NCBI GenBank assembly: GCA_018817385.1
Contig: JAHIUA010000009.1
Coordinates: 1-46,494, forward strand
Reading direction: 5' to 3'
Origin: Pseudomonadota bacterium
GTDB lineage: Bacteria > Desulfobacterota > Desulfobulbia > Desulfobulbales > Desulfocapsaceae
Length of the DNA stretch: 46,494 bases
The position numbers and the translations under genes were made by a program. Each line of letters begins with the position of its first letter. Within the stretch, counting starts at the first letter, position 1. The notes beneath the pieces are model-generated. The model did not search any database and had not been told where the DNA came from. It saw only the letters and a list, made by a program, of their open reading frames with translations. This document shows, piece after piece, positions 9,929-43,280 of the stretch.

Positions 9929-10636
9929 ACCAACCTCAATCATGCTCTAACCAAAAAAGGGGGACAACGTGCCTCCAGAGAAAAAAGCAACTCAACCCCT
10001 CAGAGAGTGTTGGAGCGGCTTCAGCCGCGAATAGACCAGGCAAGCCCCCCTTATCTCTGTCAAACCAGCACCGGATACCATTCGCGGCTAAAGCCGCTCC
10101 AACAAGACAAGTAGCTCACTCGAAGTGCAAGAGGTATCATTCACCAGTTTTAGGAAAGTCTCTCCGGACAAGGCTACCAACCAAGTCGTACAACCAACCT
10201 CAATTTACTCAACCCCAAAAAAATAAACAGTTCATCTTCCAAAGAAAAAAGCAACTCAACCCTCAGCTCAGTGTTGGAGCGGCTTCAGCCGCGAATAGAC
10301 CAGGAGAGTCCCCCCTTATCTGTCAAACCAGCATCGGATCCCTTTAGCAATTGAATCCGGCTCCAACAAGACAAGTAGCTCACTCGAAGTGCAAGAGGTA
10401 TCATTCACCAGTTTTAGGAAAGTCTCTCCGGACAAGGCTACCAACCAAGTCGTACAACCAACCTCAATTTACTCAACCCCCAAAAAACAAACAGTTCATC
10501 TTCCAGAGAAGAAAGCAACCCAACCCTCAGCTCAGTGTTGGAGCGGCTTCAGCCGCGAATAGACCAGGAGAGTCCCCCCTTATCTGTCAAACCAGCATCG
10601 GATCCCTTTAGCAATTGAAGCCGCGCCAAAATAGAG
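9929..10636. repeat. 264-bp tandem repeat with REP-like hairpins
   Basis: A unit of exactly 264 bases is repeated about 2.7 times (anchor ACCAACCT at 9929, 10193 and 10457; anchor GTTGGAGCGG at 10009, 10273 and 10537). Copies two and three are nearly identical; copy one is more diverged at its left end. Each unit holds GTTGGAGCGGCTTCAGCCGC, itself a hairpin. In copy one an inverted partner (ATTCGCGGCTAAAGCCGCTC, 10080 on) makes a larger cruciform, which is decayed in the later copies. The design resembles REP/BIME elements, which bind integration host factor or gyrase in some bacteria. No protein is encoded; open frames across it are accidental. Confidence 0.85.
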
Positions 10637-14196: not shown

Positions 14197-17010
14197 ATGA
14201 TGAATTTTCAGAGGCATTTTGTTCCTAGATTACTGATGATTATGAGTTTGGTTGCATTCCTTGCCGGAGGTTTTGGCTGTTCAGGGGAAGATCCTGAGAA
14301 AATGTTTCAGCAGGGAATTGATGCCATGACCGGTGACAAACTCGACGAGGCTGTAATTTGGTTTAAAAAGGCATTACAAAAAAATCCAGAAATGGCTTTG
14401 GCCCACTACAAACTGGGAGAGGTGTATCGTAAAAAAGGTGAGGCCAAGTTGGCGTATGCCGAGTTAAGTCGTGCTGTTCAACAGGACCCAAAACTAAAGG
14501 ATGCTCGAAAAGAGTTGGCTTTTCTTCTTGTTGAAAATCGGGCTGTGGATCAAGCAGTAACAGTCTGTGAGCAATTCCTCGAAGTGAATGGGGACGATAA
14601 GGACATTTACGTGATACTTGGTAATTCTCTCGCTTATCAAAAAGAAAATGAGAAGGCGGTAACGGTTTTAACAAAAGGCAGTAAACTCTATCCCGAACAT
14701 ATTGTGCTAAAAATAAATTTAGCCCGAATGCTGGTTATAAAAGGTGATGTTGAAGAGGGACGTGCCATGATGGAGGCACTGGCCCAGGAAAAACAAGCCG
14801 ATGTCGGGGTGCAGCTTGCCCTTGCCCAACTGTATGAAAAACTGGAACGATATGATCTGGCAGTAATGGTTCTTGAGGCTGTCAAAGAAAAATTCCCAGA
14901 AAACGCTCTCCCTTATCTCTTCTTAGCCCAACTGTCTCTGAAAAAAAACCAGCCTGACCAGGCCAAAAAGATTCTCCTTGATGCTGAAGAAAAAGGAGTA
15001 AGAGATTCTCGACTCTATAGCATGTATGGAATGATCATTCACCGCCAGGGAGATTCTGATAATGCTTTGAAATATTATGAAAAGGCCGTTGGTGCAGCGA
15101 CTGGTGAAATGCGCCAAAGCTATCAAATGATCCTTGCTGACTATCATATCTTTCTCAAAAATTATCAAGAAGCTCAAAAGATTCTCGAAGGTATCATTGC
15201 TGAGGATAGCAGCAAAAAAATGTTGAAATCAAAGATCGTCGAGCTCTTTATGGCTCAAGGAGAGTTCGATCAGGCGCGAGCTTCGGTTGATACCCTGTTA
15301 AAAGAAGATTCCAGTGATGCTCGTGGACACTTCTTAAAGGGATTGATGATGATGCAGGATAAAGAGGTCGCCGAGGCCAGGGAAGAATTTTCCAGGGCAA
15401 AGGATTTGGCGCCCAACGCAGCCGAAAATCAGTTCCTGTATGGGGTGACCTTCATGAATGAGTCTGAGCAGATCAGTATTGCAGAGATCAGTGAAGCCTT
15501 GAAGAAAAACCCGAATCTCTTGAAAGCCCGTTTTGCCTTGGCAGAGATCTATGCCAGAAAAGGAGAGTTTCAACAAAGCCTTGCTGAGCTTGACAAGATT
15601 CTTGCCAAACAAGGGGAAAGTAATCAGCTTGATCAGATTGTCGGGAAGCAAACCGATAACATCACGGCTAGAATTTTACGAATTGCTGTGCTCCTGAAAA
15701 TGGAAAAACCTGATGTTGCTTTGGAGGATGCTAAACTCCTGGTTGAGGAACAGCCCGATGTTTCCGGGCATAAGTTTCGTTTGGCTGAAATCTATTATTA
15801 TACAGGAGAATATGATAAAGCCTTACTCCTCTATGAAAAACTGCAGGAGGAAAAGCCAGACAGTATTACGATGTTGAATAGAATAGTTGGCGTATTCATG
15901 TTGAAAAAGGAATATGAAAAAGCCATGATGGCTGCTGATTCTTTCTTGGTAAAATATCCAATGAATAGTTCGGCAGTCATGATTAAAGCAAAAATATATC
16001 TTTCCCAAGGGTACGTGGACCTTGCTGAGAATGCTCTTAAACCTGAAGCGGATAAGGGGGAAGATGCAGCACTCATTGTCATGCTGGCAGAACTCTATAA
16101 AAATAAAAAGGAAGTGAATCAGGCAGTTCAATATTTTCAGAAGGCCTTGGAGTTGGTTCCGGATAATATTGAAATAATGATTAAGCTTGCTGGCATCTAT
16201 ATGGAAAGTGGAAGAAAGATAGAGGCAATTGCAAGCTACGAAAAGGTGTTGGAGCTAAAGGATGATTTGCTTCCGGCCATGAACAATCTCGCTTTTCTCT
16301 ATGCAGAAGAGGGGAGAGATCTTGATCGAGCCCTTAATCTTGCCAATACGGTCTATAGGAAACTCCCGAAAAATGCTGATGTTGCTGATACTCTGGGCTG
16401 GATTTATGTTATGAAAAATGTCTACACCCAGGCAGAGCCTTACCTGGTGCAGGCAATGGCTGCAAAGCCGGAAAACCCCTCTATCATCTATCATATGGCC
16501 ATGCTCCGTTATGGCCAGAAACAACAACAGAAAGCTGAAACCCTGCTGACCTTGGCCATAGAAAAGGGACTTTCCGGTAATGAACTCACTGCTGCAAGAG
16601 AAACTCTTGCCGTCCTGACTGTATCCAAAGAGAAACTTCTTATGGCAAAATCTCAAAAACAGCAGGGGAATGTGGAGCAGGCTATAGCACTGTTTGAAGA
16701 AGTGTTGAAAAATGAAGGATTCAATACTGAAGCAGCTACAGAACTGGCAGTACTCTATGTTGAACAGAATAAAGACATCACCCGTGCTTTCGAACTTGCC
16801 CAAAAGGCTTATGCAGAGCAACCATTTAACCCCCAAACTGCAGATGCCCTGGGCTGGGTCTATTACCATCAGGGATCATTTCTCCTGGCGCAACAGTACC
16901 TGGAAAAAGCCCTGAAAAACGACGAACAATACGCACCAGCCCGAATCCATCTCGCAGCAATGCATTTGAAGAAAGAAGAGTTGGAGAAGCAGGAAAAGAA
17001 TGGGAAATAG
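14197..17010 (+). CDS. prsT: PrsT-like TPR lipoprotein of PEP-CTERM system
   Basis: The N-terminus is a lipoprotein-like signal (LLMIMSLVAFLAGGFGC, Cys28), although the residue at -3 is not the usual Leu. After it come more than twenty degenerate tetratricopeptide repeats filling the remaining 900 residues, such as 'DEAVIWFKKALQKNPEMALAHYKLGEVYRKKG'-like units and 'ADTLGWIYVMKNVYTQAEPYL'. Length and repeat layout match the PEP-CTERM system TPR lipoprotein family (PrsT). Members are thought to sit in the periplasm and organise polysaccharide export or protein sorting. The stop codon TAG overlaps the first heptamer of a large repeat array. Confidence 0.88.
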   Translation: MMNFQRHFVPRLLMIMSLVAFLAGGFGCSGEDPEKMFQQGIDAMTGDKLDEAVIWFKKALQKNPEMALAHYKLGEVYRKKGEAKLAYAELSRAVQQDPKLKDARKELAFLLVENRAVDQAVTVCEQFLEVNGDDKDIYVILGNSLAYQKENEKAVTVLTKGSKLYPEHIVLKINLARMLVIKGDVEEGRAMMEALAQEKQADVGVQLALAQLYEKLERYDLAVMVLEAVKEKFPENALPYLFLAQLSLKKNQPDQAKKILLDAEEKGVRDSRLYSMYGMIIHRQGDSDNALKYYEKAVGAATGEMRQSYQMILADYHIFLKNYQEAQKILEGIIAEDSSKKMLKSKIVELFMAQGEFDQARASVDTLLKEDSSDARGHFLKGLMMMQDKEVAEAREEFSRAKDLAPNAAENQFLYGVTFMNESEQISIAEISEALKKNPNLLKARFALAEIYARKGEFQQSLAELDKILAKQGESNQLDQIVGKQTDNITARILRIAVLLKMEKPDVALEDAKLLVEEQPDVSGHKFRLAEIYYYTGEYDKALLLYEKLQEEKPDSITMLNRIVGVFMLKKEYEKAMMAADSFLVKYPMNSSAVMIKAKIYLSQGYVDLAENALKPEADKGEDAALIVMLAELYKNKKEVNQAVQYFQKALELVPDNIEIMIKLAGIYMESGRKIEAIASYEKVLELKDDLLPAMNNLAFLYAEEGRDLDRALNLANTVYRKLPKNADVADTLGWIYVMKNVYTQAEPYLVQAMAAKPENPSIIYHMAMLRYGQKQQQKAETLLTLAIEKGLSGNELTAARETLAVLTVSKEKLLMAKSQKQQGNVEQAIALFEEVLKNEGFNTEAATELAVLYVEQNKDITRAFELAQKAYAEQPFNPQTADALGWVYYHQGSFLLAQQYLEKALKNDEQYAPARIHLAAMHLKKEELEKQEKNGK

Positions 17011-17340
17011 CGGTTTGCGGTATGCGGTGTGCGGTTTGAGGTTTTAGGAAAAGATAAGGGGAAAAGAACGGGAAAAGAGCGGGAAAAGAACGGGAAAAGA
17101 GCGGGAAAAGAGCGGTAAAAGAGCGGTTTGCGGTATGAGGTTTGCGGTTTTAGGAAAAGATAAGGGGAAAAGAACGGGAAAAGAGCGGGAAAAGAACGGT
17201 TTGCGGTATGCGGTATGCGGTATGCGGTTTGAGGTTTTAGGAAAAGATAAGGGGAAAAGAACGGTTTGCGGTATGCGGTATGAGGAAGGGATAGGGGGGC
17301 AAGGGCGGTTTTGGGTTTGGGGGAAGATAACCTATAAGGG
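17009..17340 (+). repeat. Heptamer repeat array, left arm
   Basis: Runs of GCGGTTT, GCGGTAT, GCGGTGT and GAGGTTT follow directly on the prsT stop codon. They alternate with a spacer GTTTTAGGAAAAGATAAGGG (at 17041, 17148 and 17235) and with an 11-base unit GAACGGGAAAA/GAGCGGGAAAA repeated at about 17066-17120. The top strand is almost all purine plus T. Open frames crossing the array are artefacts. The array ends just upstream of the four-helix-bundle gene at 17355. Confidence 0.9.
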
Positions 17341-17354
17341 AGGTGGGGTAGGGG

Positions 17355-17720
17355 GTGGGGAATTTTCGGGGATTGAAGGTTTGGCAGCGGAGTAAGGATC
17401 TTGCTGTGTATGTGTATACGATTACCGGAAAGGGTGATTTTTCGAGAGATCTTGGCCTGAGGGATCAGATACGCAGAGCGACTGTGTCAATCGCGAGCAA
17501 TATTGCTGAGGGGGATGAACTCAACACTAACAAACAAGCTATTCATTTCTTTTTCATAGCAAAAGGATCAACAGCAGAAGTTTTAACCCAAACAATAATC
17601 TCCCACGAAATCGGCTACATCGACCCAAAAACAGCAGCCCACATCCAAGAAGAATGCGACGCCATCTCCCGCATGCTCACCAAATTAATCCAATCAAGAA
17701 TGGTGAAAAGAGCGGTTTGA
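17355..17720 (+). CDS. Four-helix-bundle protein, S23/IVP family, within repeat array
   Basis: The 121-residue protein opens with the family signature 'F.gLKVWQRSKDLAVYVY' and contains 'GLRDQIRRATVSIASNIAEG', the hallmark of the 23S rRNA intervening-sequence (S23) four-helix-bundle family. That family also includes the Avd accessory protein of diversity-generating retroelements. GTG at 17355 gives the expected N-terminus and length (family usually about 115-130). The last residues (KRAV) and the TGA stop are encoded by the repeat sequence itself, so gene and array are physically merged. There is no rRNA gene and no reverse transcriptase next to it. Family members form pentameric, basic barrels that can bind nucleic acid; a role in handling the surrounding repeats is my inference. 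Confidence 0.88.
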   Translation: MGNFRGLKVWQRSKDLAVYVYTITGKGDFSRDLGLRDQIRRATVSIASNIAEGDELNTNKQAIHFFFIAKGSTAEVLTQTIISHEIGYIDPKTAAHIQEECDAISRMLTKLIQSRMVKRAV

Positions 17721-18090
17721 GGTTTGCGGTTTGCGGTATGCGGAAAGACAAAGGGAAAAGAACGGGAAAAGAACGGGAAAAGAACGGTATGCGGTATGAG
17801 GTATGCGGTTTGCGGAAGGGATAAGGGGAAAAGAAGGGTATGCGGTATGAGGTGTGCGGTTTTCGGAAGGGATAAGGGGAAAAGAAGGGTATGCGGTATG
17901 AGGTATGCGGTTTGCGGAAGGGATAAGGGGGAAAGAACGGTATGCGGTATGAGGTGTGCGGTTTTCGGAAGGGATAAGGGGGAAAGAAGGGTATGCGGTA
18001 TGAGGTGTGCGGTTTTCGGAAGGGATAAGGGGGAAAGAACGGTATGCGGTATGAGGTGTGCGGTTTTCGGAAGGGATAAGGGCAAAAACA
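17709..18090 (+). repeat. Heptamer array with six 51-bp tandem units
   Basis: Beginning in the last codons of the four-helix-bundle gene, the array contains six units of exactly 51 bases (GCGGTATGAGGT at 17791, 17842, 17893, 17944, 17995 and 18046). Units differ by a few bases, alternating GTATGCGGTTTGCGG and GTGTGCGGTTTTCGG forms. As 51 is a multiple of three, long open frames exist in several frames on both strands (126-158 codons); their low-complexity products are not credible proteins. The G-rich strand is on top, as in the left arm. Confidence 0.92.
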
Positions 18091-18131
18091 AAAAGACGGG
18101 TTAGGCAAAACACCCCGCCTTCCCCGCCTTT

Positions 18132-18402
18132 GTCCTTCCCGCAAACCTAAAACCGCAAAGCGCCTACCGTTTCCTTTCCCTTTGTCCTTCCCGCAAACCT
18201 AAAACCGCAAACCGCAAACCGCTCCTTTCCGTTCCTTTCCTTTCCCTTTGTCCTTTCCGCAAACCTAAAACCGCAAACCGCACACCGTTTCCTTTCCCTT
18301 CGTCTTTCCCGCAAACCTAAAACCGCAAACCGCAAACCGCTCTTTCCTGTCTTTCCTATCTTTTCCGCAAACCTAAAACCGCAAACCGCATACCGTGCTC
18401 TT
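18132..18402 (-). repeat. Heptamer array, opposite orientation
   Basis: The array is reversed here: ACCGCAA/ACCTAAA heptamers and a CCTTTCCCTTTGTC-type spacer on the top strand, so the G-rich strand is at the bottom. GCAAACCTAAAACCGC recurs at 18141, 18193, 18259, 18311 and 18367; the spacings are 52, 66, 52 and 56, of which 66 differs from 52 by exactly two heptamers. The array ends against the stop codon of the SLBB gene at 18403, giving a head-on arrangement with the array behind prsT. Confidence 0.9.
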
Positions 18403-20118
18403 TCAAGGTATATAAATCATATCACCCGCCTGCAGTTGAAAGTCCACATCGGGGGCTTTCCCTTTCAGTGCGTTATCATAGTTGTACGGGAGGCTTTCTT
18501 GCTTTCCATCAACTCTGCGAATGATCATGATGTCATTTGTGTCTGCAAAATCATTCATTCCACCTGCCTGAGCAATGGCCTGAAAAGGAGTCATGGGTGC
18601 ATTGAAAGGCTGTAAGCCTTGGCTATTGCTTCCGGGTCCGGTCATCGTTATGGTCTGGGGAATAATTTGGCCTGTTTGGGTATTTATCATCCCAGCGTTT
18701 GGTTCCCTCCTGACGACATGGACAATGTCCCCTCCATTAATCTGCGGGAAAGCAGTTTCCTGGGCTGATGCAGTCGTCTCGAGTAGGGCCTGCATGTTAA
18801 ATATCTCAATCTCGCCATTGGCCCGCATGATTTTTATCTTGGTTAGATCGGCCTCTGCAGTTTCTCCCTGGGCAGTAATCAAAAGATCCAGAAAATTCAA
18901 GCCCTTTGGGGCAGGGTATATTCCTGGGCTATTGACTGCACCAAAAATACGTATCTTCGGAGTGTCAAGTGCTGGCTGAGAATCATTTGTTACCTGTTCA
19001 GTTTCTCTAATAGGAGCCAGAGGGACAAAGACTGTGTCATTCTCATGAAGTACCGGCAGCATTCTATTATCTCCCTTGGAGAGATAGTATTGAATATCTG
19101 CCAAGAGATTTATTGATTCGCTCTTTACCTTTCTGGAGATGGTCACTTCTTCAAGATTAGCACCTTCAAGGGTGCCACCGGCTTGGCCGAGAATGGCTTG
19201 GATGTTTGCTGATTCCGGTATGTTGTACCAGCCAGGATTTGCCACGTGGCCCAGAATCTGGATGTAATGCCTTTTTTCTATGAGGTTGACAGATGCTTTG
19301 TCACTTTTGGAAAGATATTTGGGTAAATTGTTGGTGAGTAACTCGCTGATTTTTTCGGTCGTATAGCCGGAGATTTTAATATTACCCTGGCTGGGCAGAA
19401 AAATAAAACCGTGACGGTCCACCTCTACCTTTTCCTTAAAATAATTCCTTTCAGTGGGGCTGAATTCACCAGTCACCTCTTTGGGAATAATTACATACAA
19501 TAGATCACCGTTGTCGACAATTGCACTGTCTGTTTCAGTAGTAAGTGTAAGGCGGTCAAATGATTGCAGGGGCAGGGCATTCGCAAAAGGCAACTCTTTG
19601 CTTTTCCCTGCGATTATCCTGGATATTCTTGCATCCACTATACTTGCCCCGGGCCGGAGGCCGGAGGCAATATCTATTAATTCTTCAATGGACGCGCTTG
19701 GTTGCACTTTGTACCAACCGGGGTAACGAACACCATCTCCCATGAGTATGAACCGATTCTGTTCAAGTAGAGATAGGTTAATTTTTGGATCAATTGAAAT
19801 TATTGAACGGAGTGCTTGCTGTATTTGATTTTTTAAATCGACAACAGATTCCCCAGCAGCATGGATATCGCCTATCTCTGCAATGGTAATGTTCCCGACT
19901 GGGCTGATTACGTAGTTTCCTGCAAGGTTGTTTAAAAGAGGATGTTTTTTGAGTTGGAGTTGTATTGTATCTCCAGGGGCAAGAATAGTGTTGTCAGGGA
20001 AATTTGTTTTCGCCTGAGCTGAGGTCTGGAACTGTACCAGGAAAAAGAGGGAGAGGATGAGAAAAAGAGAAAAGTAAACAGTTCGTTGGGGGAGGGTGCA
20101 ATACTGTGTTTTTGTCAT
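18403..20118 (-). CDS. SLBB-domain polysaccharide export protein (Wza-like)
   Basis: The secreted outer-membrane or periplasmic export protein has a Sec signal peptide (FSLFLILSLFFLVQFQTSAQA) without a lipobox. It then has two polysaccharide-export domains ('ILAPGDTIQLQLKKHP...SPVGNITIAEIG' and 'VDRHGFIFLPSQGNIKISGY') and several SLBB domains ('GVRYPGWYKVQPSASIEELIDIASG', 'GHVANPGWYNIPESANIQAILGQAGG', 'GAVNSPGIYPAPKGLNFLDLL', 'APMTPFQAIAQAGGM'). It should form the channel through which the polymer leaves the cell. The ATG at 20118 is preferred over an upstream TTG at 20127; neither has a clear Shine-Dalgarno. At about 571 residues it is longer than Wza owing to the extra SLBB copies. Confidence 0.9.
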   Translation of the reverse strand: MTKTQYCTLPQRTVYFSLFLILSLFFLVQFQTSAQAKTNFPDNTILAPGDTIQLQLKKHPLLNNLAGNYVISPVGNITIAEIGDIHAAGESVVDLKNQIQQALRSIISIDPKINLSLLEQNRFILMGDGVRYPGWYKVQPSASIEELIDIASGLRPGASIVDARISRIIAGKSKELPFANALPLQSFDRLTLTTETDSAIVDNGDLLYVIIPKEVTGEFSPTERNYFKEKVEVDRHGFIFLPSQGNIKISGYTTEKISELLTNNLPKYLSKSDKASVNLIEKRHYIQILGHVANPGWYNIPESANIQAILGQAGGTLEGANLEEVTISRKVKSESINLLADIQYYLSKGDNRMLPVLHENDTVFVPLAPIRETEQVTNDSQPALDTPKIRIFGAVNSPGIYPAPKGLNFLDLLITAQGETAEADLTKIKIMRANGEIEIFNMQALLETTASAQETAFPQINGGDIVHVVRREPNAGMINTQTGQIIPQTITMTGPGSNSQGLQPFNAPMTPFQAIAQAGGMNDFADTNDIMIIRRVDGKQESLPYNYDNALKGKAPDVDFQLQAGDMIYIP

Positions 20119-20226
20119 GGGATTCAACTATTGGCTGTTAAGGATAGGTGTATAATGAATTAACTTGTCATTTGTGAAGTTGCTATTGCTATATTATATG
20201 AGCGCTGACAAAGAGTCAATAATCTC

Positions 20227-22720: not shown

Positions 22721-22839
22721 CCTAAAAATCTCCTCAATAAAATATCTTTTAAGTTATCAGTCAGAAAAAAGAAAATTTCCATCAAGATAAAAAGACCCCC
22801 CATGACAACCTCAAACCACTTCCCACCGCACCCCCCATA

Positions 22840-22995
22840 CCGCCTTTTCCCTTTCACCGCAAACCTCAAACCGCCAACCGCAAACCGCAAACCTCAAACC
22901 GCCTTTTCCCTTTTACCGCAAACCGCAAACCGCAAACCTAAAACCGCCTTTTCCCTTTCACCGCAAACCGCAAACCGCAAACCTCAAACCGCGTC
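22840..22995 (-). repeat. Heptamer repeat array before amidotransferase gene
   Basis: ACCGCAA/ACCTCAA/ACCTAAA heptamers on the top strand alternate with a GCCTTTTCCCTTT spacer at 22842, 22901 and 22946. The spacer intervals are 59 and 45 bases, a difference of exactly two heptamers. The array ends about ten bases before the start codon of the next gene and takes the place of its ribosome binding site. Confidence 0.9.
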
Positions 22996-23001
22996 CTTCC
23001 C

Positions 23002-24960
23002 ATGTGCGGCATAGCAGGTTATTACCAATTCAATAATCGACAGTCCAATGACCGTCGAACCCTTGAGCGGATGATCTACCCTGTCATGCACAGGGGGCCT
23101 GACGGGTTTGGTTTTTTCATAGGACAGACTGTCGGATTAGCCCACGCCAGGCTCTCCATTGTCGATCTGGAAGGTGGCTGGCAGCCCATTGCCAATGAAG
23201 ATCGGACGATATGGATTATTTTTAACGGTGAAATTTTCAATTACCCTGAGTTGCGTGAAGGGCTCCTGGCAAGAGGCCATACCTTTAGCACCCATTCAGA
23301 CACCGAGGTCATTCTCCATCTGTATGAAGAAAAAGGGAAGGATTGCCTGGCAGACCTCAATGGCCAATTTGCCATAGCCATCTATGACTCAAATAAACAG
23401 TCTCTTTTTCTGGCCCGGGATCGTATGGGGATTCGGCCTCTTTTTTATACCCTTCATAATGGCTCTTTTTACTTTGCCTCCGAAATAAAATCACTCTTCA
23501 ACGCTGATCCGGCTCTGCCCAGGGAAATCGATCCGCGTGTTTTGAGTGAGATCTTCACCTTTTGGAGTCCGGCCGGAACAGAGACCGTTTTTACAGGTGT
23601 CAAGCAACTGCTTCCTGGGCATTGCCTGGAAGTTACTTCTACAGGTGTTCATGAGCCTCTGTGCTATTGGTCCATTCCATTTTGTCCCGACGAACCAGGC
23701 AGACGATCTGAACAGGAGTATGCAGCAGAGTTACGGGAATTACTTATCGACTCTGTACGGCTTCGCCTGCGTGCGGATGTGCCGGTGGGAGCCTATCTGA
23801 GCGGAGGACTCGACTCTTCAGCCATAACCTCTCTGGTAAAACATTATACGAAAAACCCCCTGAAGACGTTTTCTGTGACCTTTGCCGATAAGGTGTATGA
23901 CGAGGCAAAGGAACAAAATGAGATGGTGGATTATCTCGGAACTGATCATCATCAGGTCGCCTGCTCGTACCAGGATATTGCGGCAGTCTTTCCTCAAGTA
24001 ATCTGGCATACTGAAACGCCTATCCTGCGGACTGCCCCGGCACCACTCTTTCTGTTGTCAAAATTGGTGCGCCGGAACCAGTACAAAGTGGTGCTCACGG
24101 GTGAAGGTGCTGATGAGGTACTGGGTGGGTATGATATTTTCAAAGAGGCTAAGGTCAGGGCCTTTATTCATGCTCAACCTGATTCCGATCTTCGACCGCA
24201 GCTCCTGAAACGTCTCTATCCCTATCTGGCCATGTCTCCAACAAAGTCTGCCGAATATGCGCGAAGATTTTTTGCTACAGATGCGGATGTCAGTGATCTT
24301 TTTTATGGCCACAGACCTCGTTGGAAGACAGCCGCAGGCACTCATGTTTTTCTGACGGATCATGTCTTGGCACAGGACAGAGACCCGGTTCAGGGACTGG
24401 GCTATCTCCAGAACGATCTGCAGGGGTTGGACTTTTTTAACAGGGCTCAGTATCTGGAGTGCAAAGTACTGATGGCCAATTATCTCCTCTCTTCACAGGG
24501 CGATCGTATGGCCATGGCCAACTCTGTGGAAGGACGGTTTCCATTTCTTGATCACCGAGTGGTGGAGTTTGCCGGCCGTATTCCGACCCACTATAAGATG
24601 AAGGCACTCAATGAAAAGAATGTTCTCAAACAGGCAGTGGCAGATATCCTCCCGACAGGAACTGTAAAACGAAAAAAACAGCCATATATGGCCCCGGATA
24701 TTTTAAGCTTTTTTGGCGAAGCAGAACCTGACTACCTTGACTATTACCTTTCAGAGAGCCTGTTAACAGAAGCAGGGATGTTCAAACCCAAGGCTGTGGA
24801 CAAATTACTTGGAAAATGTCGGCAAAAAAGCAAGCAAGGTTTTAAAGAAAATATGGCATTTGTTGGAATTTTGTCGAGCCAGATAGTATATGATAAAATG
24901 ATAAAGAATTTTAAAATAGATACACCAGAGTCTTTGGACAATGTGAAGGTGGTATCGTGA
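23002..24960 (+). CDS. Asparagine-synthase-like amidotransferase (first copy)
   Basis: This is a class II glutamine amidotransferase with the nucleophile Cys2 (MCGIAGY), 'HRGPDG' and 'NGEIFNY', followed by the asparagine synthase domain with the PP-loop SGGLDSS near residue 267 and 'GEGADEVLGGYD'. At 652 residues it resembles the amidotransferases linked to exosortase-A loci rather than housekeeping AsnB. It probably transfers ammonia from glutamine to a sugar or acyl group of the polymer. The gene starts directly after a heptamer array and shows no Shine-Dalgarno sequence (GTCCTTCCC precedes the ATG). It heads a set with the ACP, ligase and PP-loop genes. Confidence 0.92.
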   Translation: MCGIAGYYQFNNRQSNDRRTLERMIYPVMHRGPDGFGFFIGQTVGLAHARLSIVDLEGGWQPIANEDRTIWIIFNGEIFNYPELREGLLARGHTFSTHSDTEVILHLYEEKGKDCLADLNGQFAIAIYDSNKQSLFLARDRMGIRPLFYTLHNGSFYFASEIKSLFNADPALPREIDPRVLSEIFTFWSPAGTETVFTGVKQLLPGHCLEVTSTGVHEPLCYWSIPFCPDEPGRRSEQEYAAELRELLIDSVRLRLRADVPVGAYLSGGLDSSAITSLVKHYTKNPLKTFSVTFADKVYDEAKEQNEMVDYLGTDHHQVACSYQDIAAVFPQVIWHTETPILRTAPAPLFLLSKLVRRNQYKVVLTGEGADEVLGGYDIFKEAKVRAFIHAQPDSDLRPQLLKRLYPYLAMSPTKSAEYARRFFATDADVSDLFYGHRPRWKTAAGTHVFLTDHVLAQDRDPVQGLGYLQNDLQGLDFFNRAQYLECKVLMANYLLSSQGDRMAMANSVEGRFPFLDHRVVEFAGRIPTHYKMKALNEKNVLKQAVADILPTGTVKRKKQPYMAPDILSFFGEAEPDYLDYYLSESLLTEAGMFKPKAVDKLLGKCRQKSKQGFKENMAFVGILSSQIVYDKMIKNFKIDTPESLDNVKVVS

Positions 24961-28629: not shown

Positions 28630-28657
28630 GTATTTAGCAGTCACCAAATGTGCTTGA

Positions 28658-28690
28658 CCGCAAACCTAAAACCTAAAACCGCACACCTAA
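28658..28690 (-). repeat. Short heptamer array before ugd remnant
   Basis: ACCGCAA/ACCTAAA/ACCGCAC heptamers fill the space from just after the deacetylase gene to the start codon of the ugd fragment at 28695. The G-rich strand is at the bottom, as at the amidotransferase gene. Confidence 0.8.
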
Positions 28691-28694
28691 AAAA

Positions 28695-28793
28695 ATGTAT
28701 ATAACAATGATTGGTGCAGGCTATGTCGGCTTGGTGACAGGAGCATGTCTGGCCGATTTCGGTCATCGTGTGGCACGTATCTGTATATGTTAA
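28695..28793 (+). pseudogene. ugd: N-terminal fragment of nucleotide-sugar dehydrogenase (ugd)
   Basis: An ATG opens 32 codons beginning MYITMIGAGYVGLVTGACLA, the dinucleotide-binding start of UDP-glucose 6-dehydrogenase, then diverges after about 27 residues (GHRVARICIC) and stops at TAA. Intact enzymes have over 400 residues. The downstream 350 bases hold nothing similar, so the gene was truncated by a deletion or insertion. It sits directly after a heptamer array, as the intact amidotransferase gene does. Confidence 0.8.
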
Positions 28794-41547: not shown

Positions 41548-42794
41548 ATGAGCATACTTAAGTTTATCCAAAAACTTCTCAGAATTAAAGGATATCGTGT
41601 CGTCAGCTTCACTTTTCATAACTGGTGCAAAGAGCTATGGCTGGAAGTTAAGCCGCACAAAAACGGTGCCCGTTGCCCCAAATGCAACCGACGCGGGAAA
41701 ATTATCCGAACCCTTGAGAAACCACGCATCTGGCGTGATGTCCCAGTTTGTGGCAGACTGTTATTTCTTATCTACTGCCCTCGAGAAATACAATGCCGCA
41801 AACATGGTCGCATTCAAGAGAACATTCCATGGGCTGCTGCCAATGCCAGGGGTACGTACCGATTTGAATATTCATTGCTGAGTTATTGTTCGATCATGAC
41901 ACAGAAAGCGGCATCCGAGCTTTTGAAAATATCGACTTCCACCCTCTCGGATATGCTTCACCGAACCATCAGCAGGATACGCGAGGGACACCGCATCAGG
42001 GGGCTAACACATATCGGTATCGATGAAATTTCCTACTGTAAGGGCGGAAGTATGCAACTATCGTTTATGACCTGAAACGCTCTTGTGTTCTCTGGGTTGG
42101 GAAAGGGAAAGGTCGAGAAACAATAGATCGTTTCTTTGCCGAAGAACTGAGTGCGTATCAACGGAAACAGATTGTTGCAGGCTGTTGTGATATGGGTCAG
42201 GCATATATTGGTGCCATTGAGCACTGGTGCCCAAATGCCACTCTGGTCCTTGATAGATTCCACATAGTCAAGGCCTTGAATGCAGCCGTCGATGAAGTAC
42301 GTAAAGAGCAATGGCGAGAAGCAGATAAGGACGGCAAAGCTACCTTAAAGGGCCTCAGGTGGTTGCTATATCGCCACTCTTCAACACGAAAGGATGAGGA
42401 TGTCCTGCGTCTCAAGGCTCTATACATGAACGGCAACCGCCGTATTTACAGAGCCTGGGTGCTCAGTGATGAATTCGAGCAATTCTGGGATTTCAAAGAT
42501 CAAACAGAAGCCGGAGACTTCCTGGATACCTGGTGTCAGACAGCCAATAAAAGTCGTCTTGAACCGATCAAAAGCTTTGTCAAAACCATCAAAAAGCACA
42601 AGCATCGTCTTCTGCCATTTGTGGAAAACAGATTAACCAATGCTATTGCTGAGGGGCTCAACAGAGTCATCAAAATCGTAAAAAACAGAGCCAGCGGATT
42701 CAGAAACCTGAACGCCTTTTCCGACATGATTTATCTCACCGTCGGAGACGTTGATATTCCTGGGCAAATACCGGCTCGTTTCTGGACGATATAA
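41548..42794 (+). mobile_element. ISL3-family transposase, frameshifted
   Basis: The first frame (41548-42075) has the ISL3 zinc-finger start 'CPKCNRRGK', 'RIWRDVPVCGR' and 'HIGIDEISYCKGG'; the product then leaves the family. One base is missing near 42041-42044, after which the +2 frame reads 'KYATIVYDLKRSCVLWVGKGKG', 'CCDMGQAYIGAIEHWCPNATLVLDRFHIVKALN' and 'TNAIAEGLNRVIKIVKNRASGFRNLNAF' to 42794. The DDE residues (ID, CD, AE) are present, so the protein was active until the frameshift. GAGGA precedes the ATG. Clear terminal inverted repeats were not identified. Confidence 0.88.
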
Positions 42795-43157: not shown

Positions 43158-43164
43158 GCGATAG

Positions 43165-43198
43165 GAGCCGGATGAGTCGAGAGATTTACGTCCGGTTC
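43165..43198 (+). ncRNA. Group II intron domain V
   Basis: The 34 bases begin GAGCCGGATGAGTCGAGAGA and end TACGTCCGGTTC, the canonical domain V hairpin with closing GAGCCG/CGGTTC-type pairing and GAGA tetraloop. Domain VI-like sequence follows (GCCTGAAGGGGCAGTTCC, 43207 on) with the intron end near 43240 or 43275. The 5' part of the intron is absent, so it cannot splice. Confidence 0.85.
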
Positions 43199-43280
43199 TG
43201 AGAGAGCCTGAAGGGGCAGTTCCTTTGGGCTACTCACCTGAGAAGCTTGGGGGGAAGTTTCCCTTGCTTACTCGACCAAC

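What the first reader, a model, noticed from the sequence alone, without database searches (positions are those of the whole stretch)
17009..18402. Four-helix-bundle (S23/IVP) gene embedded in convergent heptamer-repeat arrays
The gene at 17355-17720 belongs to the S23 four-helix-bundle family, known from rRNA intervening sequences and from Avd of diversity-generating retroelements. It sits inside GCGGTTT/GCGGTAT arrays, and its last codons and stop are made of repeat sequence. No rRNA or reverse transcriptase is adjacent. A nucleic-acid-binding protein fused to its own repeat suggests a mobile or repeat-managing element that I cannot name; function is inference.
Basis: partly seen in the sequence, partly recalled or inferred. 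Interest (0 to 1): 0.82.

Follow-up and report, generated by a model that had tools for sequence, protein, structure and literature searches.

The report
Minimal mobile element with heptamer arms
A small bacterial gene known from ribosomal RNA inserts turns out, here and across many bacteria and some archaea, to sit between two facing arrays of 7-8-letter repeats, which suggests an overlooked tiny mobile element that may also explain scattered heptamer repeats.

Summary
Window 17355-17720 encodes an S23/IVP four-helix-bundle protein (PF05635, E 1e-31), set among GCGGTTT/GCGGTAT arrays; an inverted array closes the block at 18127-18395.

The pattern is general, and not specific to GCGGTTT. In 80 S23 loci from many phyla (587 relatives found, best 80 kept), the upstream flank matches the reverse complement of the downstream flank in 67 of 80, against 372 of 6085 cross-locus pairs. 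ParE genes of related genomes show this in 0 of 30. The unit is mostly 7, sometimes 8 or 9 bp. It differs between loci, even within one genome, so the arms belong to the element. Only 2 of 132 loci show 23S rRNA.

Elements come and go: one Bacteroides sdhA-sdhB junction holds the element while a sister has a 48-nt spacer. The window's junction lacks S23 in eight of its genus, and holds it in opposite orientations in the other two examined.

I read it as a minimal mobile element, of which the rRNA intervening sequence is a special case, decaying to solo arrays. Movement through RNA is inference; a wobble test did not support it.

The parts
17010..17296 (+). upstream arm: GCGGTTT/GCGGTAT heptamer runs alternating with GGGAAAAGAGC-type runs; begins at the last base of the stop codon of the PrsT-like TPR gene
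   Evidence: local match to reverse complement of the outer downstream array, score 80 vs shuffled max 24
17355..17720 (+). S23/IVP four-helix-bundle protein gene (GTG start, 121 aa, pI 9.4)
   Evidence: PF05635 E 9.9e-32, TIGR02436 E 1.3e-32; model pLDDT 93.7 matches 2gsc and 2rld, and more weakly DGR Avd chains; pI computed
17712..18087 (+). inner downstream array, direct orientation (heptamer and 11-bp runs, then a 51-bp compound unit of about 6 copies); starts inside the last codons of S23
18127..18395 (-). outer downstream arm: related units in reverse orientation (CCGCAAA, CCTTTGTCC); ends 7 bp before the stop codon of the EpsE-like gene
14197..17010 (+). left neighbour: XrtA/PEP-CTERM TPR lipoprotein PrsT-like gene (context)
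   Evidence: TIGR02917 338.8 bits over cut-off 312.2
18403..20127 (-). right neighbour: SLBB/Poly_export polysaccharide export (EpsE-like) gene (context)
   Evidence: PF10531, PF02563; below NCBIfam cut-offs
22838..22992 (-). solo heptamer array without S23, directly upstream of an ATG at 23002 (asnB-like gene by my reading)
28657..28689 (-). short solo heptamer array directly before an ATG at 28695

Best explanation
The S23 gene and its facing arrays form a minimal mobile genetic element (0.45-0.48 kb at the two junctions measured; enlarged by array growth here). Shown: one S23 gene; arms of degenerate repeats, mostly of 7 or 8 bp, inverted with respect to each other; units that differ between S23 loci; placement in spacers, mostly between co-directional genes and in sense; patchy occupancy of the same spacers, by more than one S23 lineage; remnants and solo arms at those spacers. 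Inferred: the 23S rRNA intervening sequence (IVS) is the same element in an rRNA gene; a transcript running through it can fold the arms into a stem, cut by RNase III as reported for rRNA IVSs, so the host tolerates it in mRNA spacers; S23, structurally like the Avd protein of diversity-generating retroelements, binds the element's nucleic acid and is needed for its spread; the arrays left behind seed the scattered heptamer repeats of the genome. How the DNA copy is made (reverse transcription by a host enzyme, or recombination) is open.
For: Arms at S23 genes: 67 of 80 genome loci, 23 of 29 relatives, 12 of 12 viral contigs and 8 of 11 cyanobacterial plasmid loci reach inverted score 16 (250-bp windows beside the family match, for the plasmids beside the annotated gene); cross-locus control 372 of 6085; ParE 0 of 30; Y1 transposases 1 of 22. 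Tandem score >=12 in 86 of 157 flanks vs 14 of 423 windows 1.25-2.5 kb away. Periods 7:149, 8:37, 9:4, none other of 5-12, among flanks scoring >=10. Different units at different copies in one genome (G036, G037). Two 23S rRNA elements with the same kind of arms (L063, L066). Junction states: (G057 vs G163, flanks 95-96% identical). Same junction in opposite orientation in window and G018, S23 dS 0.287 vs neighbour 1.106. sdhA-sdhB: S23 of G057 and G147 only 59% identical although SdhB is 93%, which points to separate insertions. Purifying selection on S23 (dN/dS about 0.16 window-G018; median 0.15 in Chryseobacterium, two shortened copies included). Sense:antisense between co-directional genes 79:5 in three cellular sets vs 7:4 for Y1 transposases. 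Fold like Avd in the DGR ribonucleoprotein 8ub7 (TM 0.76-0.79 by query, but E 0.03).
Against: No transposition was observed. No target-site duplication: in the best empty site the spacer looks replaced, and loss with a scar is not excluded. Sense-strand G-U wobble is not favoured in the arms (173 G-U vs 247 A-C over 113 of 132 loci; by locus 34 vs 48, p 0.15), so no sign of selection on an RNA stem. Ordinary genes of the same loci show a similar sense bias, 23:2. In the viral set the bias is reversed, 0:7. 13 of 80 genome loci miss the arm threshold, and two G037 copies show little array (L095). Arrays abundant without an S23 gene of that unit. Some placements look vertically inherited (Chryseobacterium purC-purF S23 92-94% identical).
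Confidence: 0.55

Rival explanations
1. DNA-level element: the inverted arrays act as terminal repeats or recombination sites; S23 binds them as DNA and the element moves or flips by recombination or transposition without an RNA step. Solo arrays are MITE-like or excision products.
For: Opposite orientation of S23 at the same junction in window and G018; arms match without sense-wobble preference; solo inverted arrays with tiny loops in the own genome (L044) and heptamer hairpins without S23 at purC-purF (by eye); basic protein, pI 9.4.
Against: S23 matched no nuclease or recombinase family or structure in the searches made; no target duplication; mostly sense placement in cellular operons differs from a DNA transposon family (79:5 vs 7:4, p 0.009).
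Confidence: 0.25
2. Domesticated regulatory cassette: S23 with its arms is kept in operon spacers as an RNA-processing or transcript-balancing module (for example between sdhA and sdhB, purC and purF), mostly inherited vertically with occasional loss.
For: Purifying selection; shared placement in purC-purF, sdhA-sdhB, fadB-fadA and argE-argH spacers in related species (gene names are my reading of the sequences); hairpins remain at purC-purF where S23 is absent.
Against: Patchy presence (2 of 27 resolved sdhA-sdhB junctions), remnants, and different S23 lineages at the same junction.
Confidence: 0.15
3. Coincidence: S23 genes merely sit in repeat-rich intergenic DNA; arrays are ordinary simple-sequence repeats.
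For: Arrays are common in this genome without S23; distant windows of the loci also hold some 7-bp arrays (19 windows scoring >=10).
Against: Strong contrast with distant windows of the same loci and with ParE and Y1 transposase genes; the two arms of a locus match each other far more often than those of other loci; units differ between S23 copies within a genome.
Confidence: 0.03

Closest known systems
rRNA intervening sequences (IVS) with S23 ORF, e.g. the Coxiella burnetii IVS in helix 45 of 23S rRNA (PMC4990558; passages and Discussion section read)
   Same: S23 gene between terminal inverted repeats; tandem heptameric repeats upstream of the ORF are reported there, with copy number differing between strains; cleavage by RNase III shown in vitro; old ideas of a transposition remnant are cited
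   Different: 130 of the 132 loci tested here show no 23S rRNA; most lie in spacers of protein-coding genes; units differ between loci; presence/absence and remnants at mRNA junctions
Cyanobacterial STRRs (recalled term) and other heptanucleotide repeats: TAACTGA in Beggiatoaceae (PMC4679880, passages read) and GGGAATC in Xanthomonas/Nostoc (PMC4692102, passages read)
   Same: dispersed intergenic arrays of 7-bp units; TAACTGA (as TCAGTTA) and GTGATTA fit, by my comparison, the soft RGTNAnn consensus of S23 arms
   Different: term search found no 's23' or 'four helix' in the main text of either paper; the passages read tie no S23 protein to these repeats
Avd of diversity-generating retroelements
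   Same: similar fold (4dwl, 8ub7); Avd being a pentamer is recalled
   Different: 11-14% identity in the structural matches, E 0.03 and above; no reverse transcriptase gene next to the window's S23 gene
REP sequences with RAYT transposase; MITEs
   Same: one small protein gene flanked by inverted repeats, with many solo copies without the gene (analogy, recalled)
   Different: S23 is not a Y1 nuclease; arms are tandem 7/8-mers with variable sequence

Membership tests
S23/IVP (PF05635, TIGR02436) protein family | profile match over the curated cut-off | tested here: met
   109.8 bits vs 33.8; 112.2 vs 24
S23/IVP (PF05635, TIGR02436) protein family | four-helix bundle fold | tested here: met
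   four helices, pLDDT 93.7; 2gsc TM 0.79-0.83 by query
rRNA intervening sequence | located inside an rRNA gene | tested here: not met
   window locus lies between two protein genes; no rRNA match in the window
rRNA intervening sequence | inverted repeats bounding the insert | tested here: met
   17010-17354 vs 18101-18402, score 80 vs shuffled max 24
rRNA intervening sequence | excision from the transcript by RNase III | not testable with these tools
   needs RNA; reported for rRNA IVS in PMC4990558
DNA transposon (transposase, terminal repeats, target-site duplication) | transposase gene | tested here: not met
   S23 is the only family match between the arms; other ORFs there are array sequence
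DNA transposon (transposase, terminal repeats, target-site duplication) | target-site duplication | tested here: inconclusive
   none visible at the G057/G163 sdhA-sdhB junction; spacer looks replaced; one site only
Diversity-generating retroelement | reverse transcriptase gene beside the Avd-like gene | tested here: not met
   both neighbours of S23 are other genes; the rest of the genome was not searched for reverse transcriptases
Heptanucleotide STRR-type repeat | tandem arrays of a 7-bp unit dispersed in the genome | tested here: met
   182 pattern hits vs 0 reversed control

The most novel reading that the evidence does not exclude
S23 elements are a widespread, unrecognised class of minimal selfish element of bacteria and archaea. 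The rRNA IVS is merely the copy that landed in rRNA, and the long unexplained heptanucleotide repeats of bacterial genomes are its arms, left behind or spread in trans. S23 works like Avd: it binds element RNA freed from host transcripts by RNase III at the arms and hands it to a reverse transcriptase encoded elsewhere, so one 120-residue non-enzyme carries a retroelement life style.
Probability: 0.25. Interest if true: 0.93.

Novelty: new variant of a known kind. Interest (0 to 1): 0.8.

Why it matters
It would turn three separate puzzles (rRNA intervening sequences, orphan 'four helix bundle protein' genes, heptanucleotide repeats) into one testable element, with known junctions (purC-purF, sdhA-sdhB) where presence, decay and RNA processing can be measured in harmless laboratory bacteria. 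It also gives a candidate binding partner (S23) for heptamer arrays.

Tried and rejected
GCGGTTT-specific association: rejected, since units differ among S23 loci and the unit is nearly confined to the window's genus (9 of the 11 genomes with hits, 56 searched).

RNA-stem selection by wobble: tested and not supported.

Unit rule: a soft consensus RGTNAnn in S23 sense (information 3.35 vs permuted-column maximum 2.72, 74 upstream 7-bp arrays; 3.23 vs 2.70, 86 downstream arrays); the window's own unit fits it poorly, so I do not build on it.

Apparent multicopy of S23 in G030 as proof of transposition: rejected, because the five copies compared are in 23S rRNA; one (C71) carries a different S23 and unit at the same site.

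Sense bias as proof of an RNA step: weakened, since ordinary genes of the same loci give 23:2.

Phages: no match in 50,697 records with one S23 query. Published link of S23 genes outside rRNA to heptamer arrays: not found in ten full-text searches of the held library (listings seen, three papers opened in part); subscription papers and preprints are not held.

Not analysed although fetched: L232-L241. Of the match rows, the 29 relatives' loci it returned (plus the window's own, L001) were used in the main statistic and further copies fetched. L245 (near copy of L244) was left out of the 132-locus counts; the window itself is not among the 132. The sdhB and purC junctions are the 30 best-matching loci of 57 and 59 genomes, not a random draw.
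Full report
OBSERVATION. The gene 17355-17720 is a member of the S23/IVP family (PF05635, E 9.9e-32; TIGR02436, E 1.3e-32). It stands between a PrsT-like TPR gene (14197-17010, +) and an EpsE-like export gene (18403-20127, -). Apart from the gene and a short stretch before it, most of the spacer is repeat: + oriented heptamers 17010-17296, + oriented compound repeats 17712-18087, and the reverse orientation 18127-18395. The upstream block matches the reverse complement of the outer block with score 80 against a maximum of 24 in 200 shuffles, while the inner downstream block is direct (117 direct, 7 inverted). This is the only S23 gene found in the genome, yet the heptamer pattern occurs 182 times (reversed control 0); 19 clusters without S23 in 15 further regions were read, and two more lie in the window.

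GENERALITY. Reading the flanks of 29 S23 loci of related genomes showed short tandem repeats beside most, with units that differ from locus to locus. Measured on 30 loci (window plus 29): tandem score >=14 in 40 of 60 flanks vs 1 of 53 windows 1.15-1.4 kb away; inverted match >=18 in 22 of 30 loci vs 28 of 812 cross-locus pairs (the window itself misses here, because its nearest downstream array is direct). There, tandem score >=12 occurs in 86 of 157 flanks vs 14 of 423 distant windows, and inverted match >=16 in 67 of 80 vs 372 of 6085 cross-locus pairs; direct match 13 of 80. Viral contigs: 12 of 12 vs 8 of 132 cross pairs. Controls: ParE genes in relatives (30 loci), tandem >=12 in 1 of 60 flanks, inverted >=16 in 0 of 30; Y1 transposases (30 loci) 3 of 52 and 1 of 22. 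Among flanks scoring >=10 the period is 7 (149), 8 (37) or 9 (4); distant windows are mixed (7: 19 of 36). Only L063 and L066 of 132 loci show 23S rRNA similarity; masked letters lie near S23 in only 3 of 132 loci, these two and L111, and Rfam names LSU rRNA in L063 and L066 and in none of 11 other loci given to it. Both have the same kind of arms.

ARMS BELONG TO THE ELEMENT. G036 and G037 carry several S23 genes with differing units; two neighbouring G037 copies (L095) show little array. On the S23 sense strand upstream arrays have G over C in 69 of 79, downstream arrays C over G in 73 of 87. A soft unit consensus RGTNAnn exceeds column-permuted controls.

WHERE THEY SIT. By ORF calling, S23 lies between co-directional genes in sense 53 times and antisense once in the genome set, 17:2 in relatives, 9:2 in cyanobacterial plasmids, but 0:7 in viral contigs. 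Ordinary genes in the same loci give 23:2, so the bias is gene-like; it differs from Y1 transposases, 7:4 (Fisher p 0.009). Annotated examples: cas10-S23-cmr3, cas6-S23-cas4, TraM-domain gene-S23, and nrdB-S23-nrdA with S23 antisense. Of the plasmid records 28 matched; I fetched 12, all cyanobacterial. All 12 show an inverted arm match when the windows reach into the gene ends (lowest score 17, no cross-locus control); with windows outside the annotated gene 8 of 11 reach 16.

GAIN AND LOSS. (i) Window junction: the EpsE query was found in 10 of the 19 other genomes of the genus. G007 ends at the contig edge; G018 has S23; the eight others (G001, G003, G004, G008, G009, G010, G012, G015) have no S23 there, G004 keeping short heptamer pieces (by reading). 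In G018 EpsE and S23 are + and PrsT -, i.e. S23 is flipped relative to both neighbours. S23 dS is 0.287 against 1.106 for EpsE (p 7e-8 with approximate site counts), so the two S23 copies look younger than the split of the neighbours. (ii) Bacteroidaceae sdhA-sdhB: 30 loci read of 57 genomes with a match, 27 resolved: S23 in 2 (L284, L289), solo 3' arm in 2 (L306, L307, by eye), short spacer in 23. G057 with the element and G163 with a 48-nt spacer share 96% (sdhA part) and 95% (sdhB) nucleotide identity; the spacer seems replaced and no duplication is seen; loss with a scar is not excluded. S23 of G057 and G147 are 59% identical where SdhB is 93%. (iii) Chryseobacterium purC-purF: 30 loci read of 59 genomes, 29 resolved: full-length S23 in 6, shortened reading frame in 2, a 456-nt copy without the S23 motif (L281), apparent deletion remnants L278, L280, L259, heptamer-like hairpins with other units and no S23 in 8 (by eye), other spacers in 9. 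S23 median dN/dS 0.15 (shortened copies included) against 0.025 for purC.

MECHANISM. The model of the window protein (pLDDT 93.7) matches XCC0516, BT_0352 and, at 11-14% identity and E 0.03 or more, Avd in the DGR ribonucleoprotein. With published RNase III cleavage and heptameric repeats of the Coxiella IVS I favour an RNA-processed selfish element. Against: no wobble preference (173 G-U, 247 A-C, 113 of 132 loci), no target duplication, and no direct evidence of movement. The DNA-level version remains a serious rival.

KNOWN AND NEW. Heptameric repeats beside S23 are in print for one rRNA IVS (PMC4990558). Dispersed heptamers are in print without S23 (PMC4679880, PMC4692102; passages read; term search). 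I found no paper that ties S23 genes outside rRNA to such arms in the ten searches listed under Tried and rejected. I file it as a new variant of the IVS kind; it fails the defining rRNA location.

Noticed in passing
window 22838-22992 and 28657-28689: Two more heptamer arrays of the same unit type without S23, each directly before a gene start.
   Followed up: partly
L188, L189, L192-L196: In viral contigs S23 is antisense to both neighbours in 7 of 7 co-directional cases, the reverse of cellular loci.
   Followed up: no
L230 vs L099, L100, L229, L231 (G030): One genome has two different S23 intervening sequences with different units at the same 23S position in different rRNA copies.
   Followed up: partly
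window 41548-42794 and 43163-43238: Two neighbouring same-strand ORFs that look like one split transposase (my reading, no profile search) and a group II intron match.
   Followed up: no
window 9974-10623: 264-bp tandem repeat, 2.5 copies, 93% matches.
   Followed up: no
L306, L307: sdhA-sdhB spacers that keep only one arm with 8-bp-like units and no S23.
   Followed up: partly
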